From the NCBI GenBank assembly GCA_003158855.1, contig PMLJ01000043.1, forward strand, positions 124,001-188,000: DNA of 64,000 bases, in the 5' to 3' direction. Positions 56,024 to 63,428 of this stretch are shown one piece after another. The translations under genes and the position numbers were made by a program. The notes below the pieces were generated by a model. The model saw nothing but the letters and a program-made list of their open reading frames with translations, was not told the DNA's origin and did no database searches. The stretch comes from Acidimicrobiaceae bacterium. GTDB lineage: Bacteria > Actinomycetota > Acidimicrobiia > Acidimicrobiales > RAAP-2. The number at the start of each line of letters is the position of its first letter. The stretch's first letter is position 1.

Positions 56024-56425
56024 TCAGAACTGAGCGGGAATCTCCACGCCGACGTTGGTGGCCTTCACGACGGCATCAACCACCATCCCCGGAACGAGCT
56101 GAAGTTCGTCAACCGCTTCGCGGGTGATCAATGAGACGAAACGATGGGGACCGGCCTGGATCTCGACCTGCGCGGCCACCTTGTCCTTCACCACCTTGGT
56201 CACGATGCCGACGAAGCGATTACGGGCTGACTGCGCACGGGGATGCTCAGTTGTCTGGTCACCGGCGATCTCGATGGCGAACTTGGCCAAATCGACGCCG
56301 TCGAAGTAGCGCCGCCCACCCGATCCCACCGTGGCCTTGATCCTTCCGGCGTCCACCCATCGGCGCACCGTGTCGGTGCTCACCCCCAACAGCTCGGCGA
56401 CCTGGCCAATGCGGTACTGCGTCAC
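56024..56425 (-). CDS. HTH (MerR/excisionase-type) + TOBE/Mop-domain molybdate-responsive regulator
   Basis: YRIGQVAELLGVSTDTVRRWVDAGRIKA plus SARNRFVGIVTKVVKDKVAAQVEIQAGPHRFVSLITREAVDELQLVPGMVVDAVVKATNVGVEI; GTG start at 56425. Confidence 0.85.
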   Translation of the reverse strand: MTQYRIGQVAELLGVSTDTVRRWVDAGRIKATVGSGGRRYFDGVDLAKFAIEIAGDQTTEHPRAQSARNRFVGIVTKVVKDKVAAQVEIQAGPHRFVSLITREAVDELQLVPGMVVDAVVKATNVGVEIPAQF

Positions 56426-56543
56426 GTCCAAAGGATAGCGATCGCAACGCAACTGTCCCGTCCGGCGTGTTCGGCTACTCGTAGTCCCGCCGCCGGGCCC
56501 GACTCTCTGACTGCACCGGTCGCTACGTCGGCAGCATTGCGCC

Positions 56544-57059
56544 GTGGACGATATGCACCAACTCAACAGAACGCCTCGTGAGGGGACCTTCCCGCGCGAC
56601 CTTGGTCCCTCGGAGGTCAGTCCTCGTCGCGCGGTGGCGCGCTGTCGTATCACGATGTTGGCGTCCACCACGGCGAGTGTGGCGACGAACACGATGAACA
56701 AGGGTGACGTGCTGGCGACCGCTCGCGTGGCGGGCACTCAAGCGGCCAAGCAGGCGGCGTCACTCCTGCCCATGTCCCACCTCGTGCTGGTGAGCAACGT
56801 CCACTTGAACTTCACGATCGCCGACACCCACATTGATGTCGATGCGAGCGTCGACGCGGTTGACCGGACTGGTGTCGAGATGGAGGCCCTCACGGCGGTC
56901 ACCGTGGCGGCGCTCACCATCTACGACATGTGCAAGTCCGCCGATCGCACGATGACGATAGGAAACGTGGCGCTGTGGGAAAAGTCCGGGGGCCGCGCGG
57001 GCACCTGGCGGCGCGAAGAGGCGTTGCGCGACTCGAACGACGTCGAAGCCGAGCACTAG
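56544..57059 (+). CDS. MoaC paralogue A (short/divergent N-terminus; retains K51, D128 and K131 equivalents)
   Basis: NKGDVLATARVAGTQAAK; LLPMSHLVLVS; GVEMEALTAVTVAALTIYDMCKSADRTMTIGNVALWEKSGGRAG. Confidence 0.85.
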   Translation: MDDMHQLNRTPREGTFPRDLGPSEVSPRRAVARCRITMLASTTASVATNTMNKGDVLATARVAGTQAAKQAASLLPMSHLVLVSNVHLNFTIADTHIDVDASVDAVDRTGVEMEALTAVTVAALTIYDMCKSADRTMTIGNVALWEKSGGRAGTWRREEALRDSNDVEAEH

Positions 57060-57158
57060 ATCCTCGTGGGCACGAGTGCGGGTCACTCCGTTCGCTTTGG
57101 TCGAAGCGACGCGAGACAGTCGGCCCTGTAGCATCGTGCGGGGGACCGGGGACATGAC

Positions 57159-57680
57159 GTGAGTGACCGGCCCGAAGCGTATCGGAGGGGTGTCGTGACC
57201 GAGCAGCCGTTTTCCCACGTCGATGGCACCGGCAAACTTCGCATGGTCGATGTCACCCACAAGCGCCCCACGCTGAGGCGCGCGTACGCGAGTTGTGTGG
57301 TGCGTACCGTGGCCGACGTGACCGCACCTGGACTGCGTACAAACGAGCTCGACCCGGTGCACGCGGCCCGCTTGGCTGGTATTCAGGCGGCCAAGCAGAC
57401 TGCCAATCTCATACCCCTGTGTCACCCGCTGAATCTCAACGAGATTCACGTTGAGGTCGTCGTGAACGAGGGACGCATCGAGATTTCCGCGACCGTAACG
57501 GCGACGCACCGCACGGGAGTGGAGATGGAGGCCCTGACGGCCTGCGCCATTGCCGCGCTCAGCATCGTCAACTCGCTCGTGGACGTCGATCCCAGGGCCG
57601 AGATCGATGATCTCGTGCTCCTGCGCAAGAGTGGCGGCAAGTCCGGCGAGTGGGGGCGACTGGTGGATGCTCCCCGCTAG
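57159..57680 (+). CDS. MoaC paralogue B (K51, D128 and K131 equivalents replaced)
   Basis: GKLRMVDVTHKRPTLRRAYASCVV; NELDPVHAARLAGIQAAKQTANLIPLCHPLNL; GVEMEALTACAIAALSIVNSLVD; KSGGKSGEW. Confidence 0.87.
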   Translation: MSDRPEAYRRGVVTEQPFSHVDGTGKLRMVDVTHKRPTLRRAYASCVVRTVADVTAPGLRTNELDPVHAARLAGIQAAKQTANLIPLCHPLNLNEIHVEVVVNEGRIEISATVTATHRTGVEMEALTACAIAALSIVNSLVDVDPRAEIDDLVLLRKSGGKSGEWGRLVDAPR

Positions 57681-60327: not shown

Positions 60328-60564
60328 TCAGCCGCCAGAGACGGGCGGGATAACGGCAATCTCGTCGTTGTCGTTCACGAGCGCACCCGGCTCCGCGTCG
60401 TCGCCGTTGACCCAGATGCGAGACACCTTGAGGATCTGCGAAAAATCGGGGCCGAAGCGCGCTACGGCCGCCGCCACCACGTCGCCGACGCAGCGGCCGG
60501 GAAGTTGCGCCTCGGCGATACCGGCGGCCTCGCGAGCCGGCCCGAAGAGTCGAAGCCGCGCCAC
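60328..60564 (-). CDS. moaD: MoaD/ThiS-family sulfur carrier
   Basis: LRLFGPAREAAG; C-terminal EIAVIPPVSGG. Confidence 0.87.
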   Translation of the reverse strand: MARLRLFGPAREAAGIAEAQLPGRCVGDVVAAAVARFGPDFSQILKVSRIWVNGDDAEPGALVNDNDEIAVIPPVSGG

Positions 60565-60567
60565 GCC

Positions 60568-61641
60568 CTAGCCGCCGATCATCGACATCGAACGCTGGGG
60601 CGACAAGAAGTCGGGCTCGTTGATGCCGTGCCCGGGGAACTTGCCCCAGACCGACGAGCGAAGGCTGTGCTCGATCGCGTCGTCGGATCCGCCCTGACGC
60701 AAGATGTCGCGCACGGAGGTTTCGGCGTCCGAGAACAGGCAGTTGCGAATGGCGCCGTCGGCGGTGAGTCGAAGGCGGTTGCAAGTGCCGCAGAACGGCT
60801 CGGTGACACTCGAGATCAGGCCGATCTCACCGGCTCCATCGGCGAAGCGGAATCGTTCGGCTGGCGCGGGGCTCGCGGTCGCCTCGATTGGCTCCAGCTC
60901 CCAGCGCGCCGAGATCAGTTCGTAGACTTCGCGACCCGGCACCAACTGCGCGCGATCCCAGTTGCCTTGGGCGTCGAGAGGCATGAATTCAATAAAGCGG
61001 ACCGTGCGACCGGTGGTGCGCGCGAACTGCGCAAACGACAGCACCTCGTCATCGTTCTGACCCCGCAACAGGACCACGTTGATCTTCAACGGCCGCAGTC
61101 CCGCCTGCTCTGCCGCGTCCATGGCATTGAGGACGACGTCGAGTGTGGCTCGCCGGCGAATGGCGGCAAAGCGCTCGGGAATCAGCGAGTCGCAGCTGAT
61201 GTTCACCCGCCGCAGACCGGCCTGAGCGAGTTCGTCTGCGCGTCGCGCCAACTCGGTTCCGTTGGTGGTGAGCGAAAGATCCTCGAATCCCAGATCGTTC
61301 AAGCCTTTCACCAAAGTGACCAGTCCCTTGCGCACGAGCGGCTCACCGCCCGTGAGGCGTACGGCGTCAACCCCGAGGCCCTTGGCCACCCCCGCAAAAC
61401 GAAGGATCTCGTCAAAGCTCAACAGCTCATCATTGGGCAGGAACGTCATGCCCTCTTCGGGCATGCAGTAGACGCAGCGCAGGTTGCATCGATCGGTCAC
61501 CGAGATCCGCAGGTCGCTGTGGACGCGGCCGTAGCGGTCGACGAGGGGACCGCTGGTGGGCATGGTCTGCACCACGCGACCCTCTGGTTCCATGGCGCGC
61601 AGCGACTTCGGTTTGATGCCAACTGGTACTGAAGTAGTCAC
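60568..61641 (-). CDS. moaA: GTP 3',8-cyclase MoaA
   Basis: TDRCNLRCVYCMPEEGM; LTGGEPLVRKGL; FCGTCNRLRLTADGAIRNCLF; C-terminal GG. Confidence 0.95.
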   Translation of the reverse strand: MTTSVPVGIKPKSLRAMEPEGRVVQTMPTSGPLVDRYGRVHSDLRISVTDRCNLRCVYCMPEEGMTFLPNDELLSFDEILRFAGVAKGLGVDAVRLTGGEPLVRKGLVTLVKGLNDLGFEDLSLTTNGTELARRADELAQAGLRRVNISCDSLIPERFAAIRRRATLDVVLNAMDAAEQAGLRPLKINVVLLRGQNDDEVLSFAQFARTTGRTVRFIEFMPLDAQGNWDRAQLVPGREVYELISARWELEPIEATASPAPAERFRFADGAGEIGLISSVTEPFCGTCNRLRLTADGAIRNCLFSDAETSVRDILRQGGSDDAIEHSLRSSVWGKFPGHGINEPDFLSPQRSMSMIGG

Positions 61642-62909
61642 CAGGCCGCCCCTCCGGTAGGTAGATCGTCACTCGGCGCAGCGACGTCGGCTGGGTTCGA
61701 CAGTAGCGCTCGAACCGAACCACCCTGGCCAACGCCCTCACCATCAGGCAGGATCAAGAGGGCGTTGGCGCTCGCCATTGCGCTGAGCTGGTGGGACTCT
61801 TGGCCCTCGAGCGGGTGCGCGAGGTAGCGGCCCCGGTGGTCGAGGGAAACAACGGCGCGCACGAAGTGGACGCGGCCGTCGCGGCTCCTCGCGAGGTCGG
61901 CCGTGGCCGTGGCGCAGACCCAGGGTCGAAACACGGTGGCGTGCCCCGCCATGCGGCGAACGGCGGGACGCACGAGGAGCTCGAAACTCACCATGGCCGA
62001 CACCGGGTTTCCCGGGAGTCCGAAGACGGGCAGGTTGGTATTGGCCAGCGTGCCAAAGGCGAATGGTTTGGCCGGGCGAATGGCGATCTGCATCCAGCGC
62101 ATCGAATCACCGCTGACGTCGTCGAGCACGATGCGCACGATGTCGAAGTCGCCAACACTGACCCCGCCGCTGGTGATGAGGGCGTCGCAGGACTCGCCGG
62201 CCCGGCCAAAGGCGTCGAGCAGGGCTCCGCGGTCATCTGGAACGACACCGAGGTCGACGGGCTCCCAGCCTTCCTGGCGAATGAGCCCCAGCAGCGAGTG
62301 ACGGTTCGCGTCTCGGATCGTGCCGGGAGCCAGTGGCCCGTCCCCGACGAAGAGTTCGTCACCCGTGGAGAGCACGCCGAGGCGAGGACGACGGTGCACC
62401 GCAACGTTCGTGAAGCCCTGCGCTGCGAGGACGCCGAGATGGGCCGGTCGAAGAGGGGTGCCGGCCTCGGCGAGCAACTGGCCGATTGCCACGTCGTGGC
62501 CGGGCCGGCGAATGAAGTTCCCCGGCGGAGTCTCGGTCGTGATGACGACGGTGGCGCCGTCATCACGTGGTTCGCACAGCTCCACCATGGTCACCGCATC
62601 CGCGCCGTCCGGGATCGGTGCGCCCGTCATGATTCGCACGGCCTGGCCCGGTTCAAGCGCGCCGTCAAAGACGTGTCCGGCGCTGAGCGAGCCAACGACC
62701 CGTAGCGTTGCCGGCGCGCCCTTCGTGTCGCTGGCGCGCAGCGCGTAGCCGTCCATCGACGAGTTCGCGAACGAGGGGACGTCGGTTTCGGCGTAGACGC
62801 TTCGTCCCACCACGCAGCCGAGCGCCTCATCGATTGGCGTCTCGGCAACCGGTAGTGGCGCGACGCGTTCGAGTACGAAGTTCTGCGCTTGAGCCAGGGG
62901 AATCACCAC
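61638..62909 (-). CDS. moeA: Molybdopterin molybdenumtransferase MoeA
   Basis: NSSMDGYALRASD, MTGAPIPDGADAVTMVE, STGDEL, DALITSGGVSVGDFDIV, FGLPGNPVSAMVSFELLVRP. Confidence 0.95.
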   Translation of the reverse strand: MVIPLAQAQNFVLERVAPLPVAETPIDEALGCVVGRSVYAETDVPSFANSSMDGYALRASDTKGAPATLRVVGSLSAGHVFDGALEPGQAVRIMTGAPIPDGADAVTMVELCEPRDDGATVVITTETPPGNFIRRPGHDVAIGQLLAEAGTPLRPAHLGVLAAQGFTNVAVHRRPRLGVLSTGDELFVGDGPLAPGTIRDANRHSLLGLIRQEGWEPVDLGVVPDDRGALLDAFGRAGESCDALITSGGVSVGDFDIVRIVLDDVSGDSMRWMQIAIRPAKPFAFGTLANTNLPVFGLPGNPVSAMVSFELLVRPAVRRMAGHATVFRPWVCATATADLARSRDGRVHFVRAVVSLDHRGRYLAHPLEGQESHQLSAMASANALLILPDGEGVGQGGSVRALLSNPADVAAPSDDLPTGGAAW

Positions 62910-62915
62910 GCTGGT

Positions 62916-63428
62916 CTACGAGCTCCGCGCAGGCCGCGCCACCGGGGCGTCGCCGGCGTCAAAGGACGACGCATCGTGGGCACACGTGCTCCAGTCCGAG
63001 CCGCCCTCCCACGTCTCGTGCTTCCAGATGGGCACGGTGTGCTTGAGCGTGTCGATGCAGAACTTCGCTGCCTCGAACGATTCATCGCGATGGGGAGTCG
63101 ACGCCGTGACGACGACCGCAACGTCGCCCACCCTGAGCATGCCCACTCGGTGCAGCAGCACGAGTCGGCCCAGCTCACCCCAGTGCGCGCGCGCCTGGGT
63201 GGCCACCTCGCTCAGGCGGGGCACGACCTGTTCGATGTAGGCCTCGTACTCGAGCGACGTCACGCCGGGTCGATGTTCGGAGTGGTCGCGCACCAGGCCA
63301 CAGAACGTTACGAGTCCGCCGCAGTGGGGCAGGCTGGCCCATTTCCACGCCTCGTCCACGGGCAGGGCATGGTCGGAGACGCCAATCCAGTCACCGGTCT
63401 GCGGCGGAGCCAGAGGCGGGAGCGTCAT
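62916..63428 (-). CDS. moaE: Molybdopterin synthase catalytic subunit MoaE
   Basis: GGLVTFCGLVRDHSEHRPGVTSLEYEAY, LLHRVGMLRVGDVAVVV, HRDESFEAAKFCIDTLKHTVPIWKHE. Confidence 0.92.
   Translation of the reverse strand: MTLPPLAPPQTGDWIGVSDHALPVDEAWKWASLPHCGGLVTFCGLVRDHSEHRPGVTSLEYEAYIEQVVPRLSEVATQARAHWGELGRLVLLHRVGMLRVGDVAVVVTASTPHRDESFEAAKFCIDTLKHTVPIWKHETWEGGSDWSTCAHDASSFDAGDAPVARPARSS

What the first reader, a model, noticed from the sequence alone, without database searches (positions are those of the whole stretch)
56544..57680. Tandem MoaC paralogues with complementary losses of conserved residues: possible heteromeric cyclic pyranopterin synthase
Seen: two adjacent same-strand MoaC-fold ORFs. 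Copy A keeps NKGDV (K51 equivalent) and IYDMCK (D128/K131), but lacks the N-terminal G..xMVDV strand and has MSHLV in place of LCHPL. Copy B has the normal N-terminus (GKLRMVDVTHK) and LCHPL, but the K51 position reads ELDPV and IYDMCK is replaced by IVNSLV. Established: E. coli MoaC uses K51, H77, D128 and K131, and its active sites lie at subunit interfaces of a hexamer. Inference: A supplies the catalytic residues and B supplies N-terminal/LCHPL elements in an obligate heteromer, or B is a regulatory pseudoenzyme. No canonical moaC is visible in this window.
Basis: partly seen in the sequence, partly recalled or inferred. Interest (0 to 1): 0.85.

Follow-up and report, generated by a model that had tools for sequence, protein, structure and literature searches.

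The report
Split active-site MoaC enzyme pair
Two neighbouring genes make two versions of the enzyme MoaC, which helps build the molybdenum cofactor; gene surveys suggest one version has lost one half of the shared active site and works only when joined to a partner that keeps that half, so a normally six-identical-part enzyme seems to have become a mixed one.

Summary
Copy A (56544-57059) keeps K51, H77, D128 and K131. Copy B (57159/57195-57680) keeps H77, TGVEME and KSGG but lost K51 and the IYDMCK motif. A's 'complementary' losses are weaker than claimed: no known catalytic residue is gone. The genome holds four MoaC genes: A, B, a second A (A') and a second B (B').

In 57 distinct B-type sequences K51 is never present, while H77, T109, G110 and E112 are invariant. 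A third type, C, in related genomes is the mirror image: K51-G-D53 and DMCK in 14/14, H77 in 0/14. In a published model of M. tuberculosis MoaC2, the K51/D128/K131 equivalents contact ligand from one subunit and the H77 equivalent from the other. So B and C each keep one half of an interface site.

Two moaA+ genomes (G131, 96% complete; G132, 91%) hold only such a pair and no intact MoaC. Across 172 family genomes, Moco-linked MoaC lacking K51 co-occurs with moaA (87/3/3/79). At least 32 good genomes keep an intact A-type MoaC but no moaA.

Best reading: a heteromeric, split-site cPMP synthase. The window shows an early stage (intact A beside half-site B). Binding and activity are untested.

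The parts
56544..57059 (+). Copy A: A-type MoaC (171 aa, GTG start), all known catalytic residues kept
   Evidence: Pfam MoaC 151.6 bits; TIGR00581 150.3 bits over cut-off 141.5; dN/dS 0.05 against G016
56700..56702 (+). A: codon of the K51 equivalent (K53 of A, in MNKGDV)
   Evidence: sequence, alignment
56778..56780 (+). A: codon of the H77 equivalent (in MSHLV)
   Evidence: sequence, alignment
56919..56936 (+). A: IYDMCK, with D128 and K131 equivalents
   Evidence: alignment
57159..57680 (+). Copy B: B-type MoaC lacking K51, D128 and K131; likely start GTG 57195 (161 aa), longer ORF from 57159 (173 aa)
   Evidence: Pfam MoaC 124.4 bits; just below the cPMP-synthase equivalog cut-off, TIGR00581 140.8 against 141.5; start choice from coding score
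57345..57353 (+). B: E-L-D in place of K51-G52-D53
   Evidence: alignments
57423..57425 (+). B: codon of the H77 equivalent (in LCHPL)
   Evidence: alignment; H77 in 57/57 B-type sequences
57513..57530 (+). B: TGVEME (E112-M113-E114 equivalents), kept
57564..57581 (+). B: IVNSLV in place of IYDMCK
57627..57638 (+). B: KSGG (K147 equivalent), kept
56024..56431 (-). Divergent MerR-type HTH plus TOBE (molybdate-binding) regulator next to A
   Evidence: Pfam HTH_17/MerR and TOBE; start from coding score
52376..52936 (+). MoaB/Mog-type protein; in other genera this domain is fused to B-type MoaC
   Evidence: NF002947 MoaB half; fusions in L124, L127, L131
53252..56008 (+). Molybdate uptake: ModA-type binding protein and a fused permease-ATPase (ModBC)
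   Evidence: Pfam ABC_tran, BPD_transp_1, TOBE_2 for the permease-ATPase; ModA by sequence and context
60328..63428 (-). Rest of the Moco set: MoaD, MoaA, MoeA, MoaE
   Evidence: Pfam

Best explanation
B is one half-site of a heteromeric MoaC (cyclic pyranopterin monophosphate synthase). MoaC is a hexamer (trimer of dimers) with its active site at the dimer interface. B has given up the K51/D128/K131 side and keeps the H77/E112-M113-E114/K147 side. In an A-B dimer, A's K51/D128/K131 and B's H77 side make one working site; the opposite site (B's K51 side with A's H77 side) is dead. In some relatives the partner has become type C, which keeps only the K51/D128/K131 side, so that only a B-C dimer can hold a complete site. 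In the window the tandem partner A is still intact, which would be an early stage of this path. Shown: the sequences, the reciprocal residue pattern, the gene context and the co-occurrence. Taken from the literature: hexamer and interface site. Inferred: that the proteins bind each other and that the mixed site makes cPMP.
For: Reciprocal pattern: B (57 distinct): K51 0/57, M129 0/57, D128 13/57, K131 5/57, but R26, C76, H77, T109, G110, E112 57/57, E114 56/57, K147 56/56. C (14): K51-G-D53, R59 and D128-M-C-K131 14/14, but H77 0/14, E112 0/14, E114 1/14, K147 0/14. Control: about 70 MoaC from other phyla and 29 from other families of the order keep K51, H77, D128 and K131 throughout. Structure: in the GTP-superposed M. 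tuberculosis MoaC2 model, Lys62, Asp137, Lys140 of chain A and His88 of chain B contact the ligand (PMC3602415); by motif these are E. coli K51, D128, K131 and H77. Only-pair genomes: G131 (96% complete, moaA+, moaE+) has only a K-half protein (H77 to R, K147 to R) beside moaA and a B; G132 (91%) only a K-half protein (H77 to F) and a B. In G131 the usual TldD-TldE-WYL locus is assembled and holds no MoaC. Co-occurrence: MoaC lacking K51 against moaA in 172 genomes 87/3/3/79. C occurs with B in 17 of 19 genomes of the genus. B is one clade and C one clade nested in A in the 90-row tree. A, B and C are all under purifying selection.
Against: No experiment and no usable complex model: the fused A-B AlphaFold run was of low confidence (pLDDT 50.6, pTM 0.37). 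The chain assignment rests on a GTP superposition and docking, not on the true substrate, and covers four residues; that E112-E114 and K147 belong to the H77 side is inferred from the loss pattern. In the window A is complete, so A6 could work alone and B could merely modulate it. The genome holds A' too, and most B-bearing genomes have an intact MoaC somewhere. G018 carries a B-like protein that keeps K51. Type D (g4, g8, g11) lost only K51. Co-occurrence counts are not independent: B and moaA lie in one gene cluster and relatives share history.
Confidence: 0.64

Rival explanations
1. B is a regulatory or scaffolding pseudoenzyme: it joins A (or binds MoaA) and changes its activity or specificity, without giving catalytic residues to any active site.
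For: Catalytic residues lost while the fold and dimer-forming parts are kept; dead paralogues that activate a partner are known (AdoMetDC prozyme PMC5201418, deoxyhypusine synthase PMC3663545); B lies near moaA or other Moco genes in most contexts seen.
Against: A pure scaffold would not need H77, E112, E114 and K147 to stay invariant over a whole family, nor would its partner be expected to lose exactly those residues as type C did. In G131 and G132 no other MoaC is left to be regulated.
Confidence: 0.18
2. B is a stand-alone enzyme with changed chemistry or a changed way to do the MoaC reaction, acting as B6.
For: B and moaA co-occur almost one to one, while A-type MoaC is kept in Moco-less genomes, so B could be the only Moco-linked MoaC; a few genomes show B and no other MoaC hit (G096, G145, G148, G149, G159, G169).
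Against: Nothing conserved replaces K51 or K131 in B (G, E, A, D, S, L and more at 51), which is not how a new active site looks. Type C is unexplained. The B-only genomes are 84-93% complete, and in at least one (G096) the usual A locus is cut by a contig end.
Confidence: 0.1
3. A (with A') is the working MoaC and B is a decaying duplicate kept by linkage.
For: A keeps all catalytic residues; duplicates with lost residues are common in general; one B copy in G016 has an in-frame stop and one in G128 is broken.
Against: B is under purifying selection (dN/dS 0.11-0.14 in the nearer pairs), has held the same half of the site across the family, and A-only genomes have no moaA.
Confidence: 0.05

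Closest known systems
Canonical MoaC (cyclic pyranopterin monophosphate synthase; E. coli MoaC, M. tuberculosis MoaC2, T. thermophilus MoaC)
   Same: Same family by sequence (PF01967), same gene context (moaA, moaE, moaD, moeA, modABC), same residues on each kept half-site
   Different: Canonical MoaC is a homohexamer in which each chain supplies both half-sites; here the two halves are split between paralogues
Bifunctional MoaC/MoaB (NF002947, PRK03604)
   Same: B-type MoaC is fused to a MoaB domain in some related genera (L124, L127, L131)
   Different: Order is MoaB then MoaC, and the MoaC domain lacks K51; in the window MoaB is a separate gene
Trypanosomatid deoxyhypusine synthase (impaired plus dead paralogue heterotetramer, PMC3663545)
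   Same: A homomeric enzyme turned into a heteromer with a catalytically dead paralogue
   Different: Unrelated enzyme, shown by experiment; here inferred from sequences, with a reciprocally dead partner (type C) as well
Multiple moaC genes of Mycobacterium tuberculosis (moaC1, moaC2, moaC3)
   Same: Several MoaC paralogues in one actinobacterial genome (PMC3602415)
   Different: The solved M. tuberculosis MoaC2 keeps the ligand-contacting residues; moaC1 and moaC3 were not examined here

Membership tests
MoaC family (PF01967) | profile match over the whole domain | tested here: met
   A 151.6 and B 124.4 bits against cut-off 27
cPMP synthase MoaC (equivalog TIGR00581), copy A | score over the curated equivalog cut-off 141.5 | tested here: met
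   A 150.3 bits
cPMP synthase MoaC (equivalog TIGR00581), copy B | score over the curated equivalog cut-off 141.5 | tested here: not met
   B 140.8 bits, just below; NF006870 152.5 against 162
Self-sufficient (homomeric) MoaC, copy A | K51, H77, D128, K131 in one chain | tested here: met
   alignment, residue counts
Self-sufficient (homomeric) MoaC, copy B | K51, H77, D128, K131 in one chain | tested here: not met
   only H77 kept
Split-site heteromeric enzyme | reciprocal loss of the two half-sites in paralogues | tested here: met
   in relatives, B against C and G131/G132; in the window itself only B has lost a half
Split-site heteromeric enzyme | no intact MoaC in at least some genomes that use the pathway | tested here: met
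   G131 (96% complete) and G132 (91%), moaA+ and moaE+
Split-site heteromeric enzyme | physical A-B or B-C assembly | tested here: inconclusive
   fused A-B AlphaFold model of low confidence
Split-site heteromeric enzyme | cPMP synthesis needs both subunits | not testable with these tools
   needs an enzyme assay
Bifunctional MoaC/MoaB (NF002947) | one chain with both domains | tested here: not met
   separate genes in the window; fused in L124, L127, L131

The most novel reading that the evidence does not exclude
MoaC in this Acidimicrobiaceae lineage has been split into obligate, reciprocally dead subunits that share one active site, with living intermediates from intact homomer (A) through A+B to B+C; and the intact A-type MoaC, kept beside TldD/TldE in genomes without moaA and (nearly all) without moaE, has a second function outside molybdenum cofactor synthesis.
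Probability: 0.45. Interest if true: 0.85.

Novelty: new variant of a known kind. Interest (0 to 1): 0.74.

Why it matters
MoaC is a textbook homohexamer in a pathway found in all domains of life. A lineage in which its active site has been divided between paralogues gives a series (intact, one-sided loss, two-sided loss) for how a homomer becomes an obligate heteromer, and a natural test of which residues act from which subunit. It also warns that annotating every MoaC hit as a cPMP synthase is wrong in both directions here: B alone lacks the catalytic half, and A-type MoaC is kept where no MoaA exists.

Tried and rejected
Fused A-linker-B model (TAG read as Q, 378 aa) with a 7-row alignment: pLDDT 50.6, pTM 0.37, not used. 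Independent origins of the H77-less partner in g1 and g8: not shown, since a single origin of all C rows is not rejected (AU p 0.61). Moco riboswitch or other Rfam element at the locus: none at gathering threshold. Literature on heteromeric or pseudoenzyme MoaC: no held paper combined MoaC with 'pseudoenzyme' or with Acidimicrobi-, and none of the twelve listed for a wider query mentions MoaC. The PNAS 2015 and Acta Cryst 2010 MoaC structure papers are not held, so the subunit assignment rests on PMC3602415. Obligate dependence of A on B: rejected, as A stands alone in many genomes, but those lack moaA. B-type MoaC outside this family: among the 80 best genome-contig hits those that are not near relatives of the window are canonical, and so are 29 order-level loci outside the family, so none was found at that depth.

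Full report
WHAT IS THERE. The two ORFs are real, on the + strand, 99 bases apart. Copy A is 56544-57059, copy B 57159-57680 with a likelier start at 57195. Both are MoaC by Pfam. A passes the curated cPMP-synthase cut-off of TIGR00581 and B falls just short of it (150.3 and 140.8 against 141.5). The surroundings form a full molybdenum-cofactor (Moco) locus: a xanthine-dehydrogenase-type molybdoenzyme, MoaB, ModA, fused ModBC, a MerR-type/TOBE regulator, A, B, then MoaD, MoaA, MoeA, MoaE and XdhC on the other strand.

RESIDUES. Against E. coli MoaC A keeps K51, H77, D128, K131, TGVEME and KSGG. Its MSHLV and PRDLG variants are ordinary in this genus and remove no known catalytic residue. B keeps R26, C76, H77, TGVEME and KSGG, but has E-L-D for K51-G-D53 and IVNSLV for IYDMCK. 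PDB entries 4PYA and 1EKS are the K51A and D128A variants of E. coli MoaC by sequence, so these positions have been studied as functional ones.

THE REST OF THE GENOME. The window's genome has four MoaC genes: A and B here, a second A-type (A', contig C17) and a second B-type (B', contig C13, beside a second moaA). A' keeps every catalytic residue; B' has the same losses as B. Contigs carrying the nearest relatives match, by exact contig length, Acidimicrobiaceae metagenome-assembled genomes from peat (palsa, bog): PKWY01000033.1, PLHD01000064.1, PKYK01000023.1, PLON01000054.1. Four of these relatives (G005, G016, G011, G020) carry the same A-B tandem.

B IS A FAMILY-WIDE HALF. In 57 distinct B-type sequences, K51 is never present and nothing conserved replaces it; M129 is never kept, D128 in 13 and K131 in 5. 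In the same proteins R26, C76, H77, T109, G110 and E112 are in 57/57, E114 in 56/57 and K147 in 56/56. More B loci from other genera agree, with one exception (G018, L313) that keeps K51 but not D128 or K131. Control sets keep K51, H77, D128 and K131 without exception: about 70 MoaC of other phyla and 29 of other families of the order. B sits in the Moco gene cluster in most contexts seen, often divergent from moaA, and in some genera is fused behind a MoaB domain (L124, L127, L131).

TYPE C IS THE OTHER HALF. In part of the window's genus a third MoaC lies in the same cluster, 8-10 kb from B where both are on one contig. In 14 distinct sequences it keeps K51-G-D53, R59 and D128-M-C-K131 in 14/14, but H77 in 0/14, E112 in 0/14, E114 in 1/14 and K147 in 0/14. 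C is found in 19 genomes of the genus (counting the intermediate G018 and a contig-end fragment in G032), 17 of them with B; of the two without, one is 68% complete and in the other the C-like gene is cut by a contig end. In the first tree B is one clade and C is one clade nested within A.

WHY THE TWO SETS FIT. The MoaC hexamer is a trimer of dimers. In the M. tuberculosis MoaC2 paper the superposed GTP is contacted by Lys62, Asp137 and Lys140 of chain A and His88 of chain B (PMC3602415). By motif these are E. coli K51, D128, K131 and H77. B has therefore lost exactly the side that one chain supplies, and C exactly the side that the other chain supplies. That E112-E114 and K147 belong with H77 is inferred from the loss pattern, not read from the paper.

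GENOMES WITH ONLY THE PAIR. In genus code g8, G131 (96% complete, 2% contamination, moaA+ and moaE+) has two MoaC genes: one beside moaA with K51-G-D and IYDMCK kept but H77 to R and K147 to R, and one B. The locus where A-type MoaC normally sits (TldD-TldE-MoaC-WYL) is assembled in G131 and has no MoaC. G132 (91%) has a B and a MoaC at the TldD/TldE locus with H77 to F and TGVEME largely lost. Neither shows an intact MoaC. If these organisms make Moco, the pair must do the MoaC step.

CO-OCCURRENCE. Over the 172 family genomes, moaA and a Moco-linked MoaC lacking K51 (B, or a type D that lost K51 but keeps IYDMCK; G018's B-like protein, which keeps K51, is counted with B) go together in 87, neither is present in 79, and each is alone in 3 (Fisher 3e-41; presence lists compiled by hand). 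The genomes share history and the genes share a cluster, so the p-value is only a description. Fifty-seven genomes, 32 of them good ones, have A-type or canonical MoaC but no moaA, and nearly all of these have no moaE. None of 42 tested such genomes has a xanthine-dehydrogenase-type molybdoenzyme over the cut-off, against 11 of 19 with B. In the TldD/TldE neighbourhood examined A lies between TldE and a WYL-domain protein in Moco-less and Moco-bearing genomes alike.

EVOLUTION. In the second tree type D is sister to B with moderate support (89-90), consistent with K51 going first and D128/K131 later. C comes from A in the first tree; the second, with more long rows, places C less surely. Copies of A beside or near B in G018 and G020 show T109S and K147R, which looks like the start of the same drift. 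Whether the H77-less partners of g1 and g8 arose once or more than once is not resolved.

MECHANISM PROPOSED. A-B dimers within a mixed hexamer: the site made of A's K51/D128/K131 and B's H77/E112-E114/K147 works, the opposite one does not. With C as partner the mixed form becomes obligate. Shown: sequences, patterns, context, selection (dN/dS about 0.05 for A, 0.11-0.14 for the nearer B pairs, 0.18-0.41 for C). Established elsewhere: hexamer and interface site. Inferred: binding and activity. A fused A-B model was of too low confidence to use.

KNOWN OR NEW. The searches of the held literature gave no heteromeric or pseudoenzyme MoaC; subscription papers are missing from it. The principle is known from trypanosomatid deoxyhypusine synthase and AdoMetDC (PMC3663545, PMC5201418). 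I rate this a new variant of a known kind.

Noticed in passing
L165-L184 (for example L165:8696-9100, -); window genome A' at L101:8759-9163, -: Intact A-type or canonical MoaC is kept beside TldD/TldE and a WYL-domain protein in genomes that have no moaA and (nearly all) no moaE: a MoaC with a likely Moco-independent role.
   Followed up: partly
L328, L329, L357, L358, L297: Type D: MoaC in a Moco cluster (with moaA close by in four of the five) with K51 replaced by A or S but IYDMCK kept, in genera g4, g8 and g11; sister to the B clade.
   Followed up: partly
L124:3403-4434, L127:8376-9857, L131:8671-9732: B-type MoaC fused behind a MoaB domain (MoaB-MoaC order, the reverse of the known MoaC/MoaB fusion).
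   Followed up: no
L004 and L100 (window genome, contig C13): A second Moco cluster in the same genome with its own moaA, moeA and moaE and a B' but no adjacent A.
   Followed up: partly
L097:8367-8813 (G016); L297:704-1293 (G128): Broken B copies: an in-frame TAG in G016's second B and a frameshifted B directly downstream of a type D MoaC in G128.
   Followed up: no
L313 and L330 (G018): Odd pair: a B-like protein that keeps K51 but not D128/K131, and a C-like partner that still has H77 but T109S and K147R; looks like an intermediate stage.
   Followed up: partly
window:56024-56431: MerR-type HTH fused to a TOBE molybdate-binding domain, divergent from A; probably the molybdate-sensing regulator of the locus, common to many of the related clusters (cluster 5).
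   Followed up: no
window:57909-59612: Two genes downstream of B, one without any Pfam match and one DUF5134; among the context loci they were found only in the nearest relatives.
   Followed up: no
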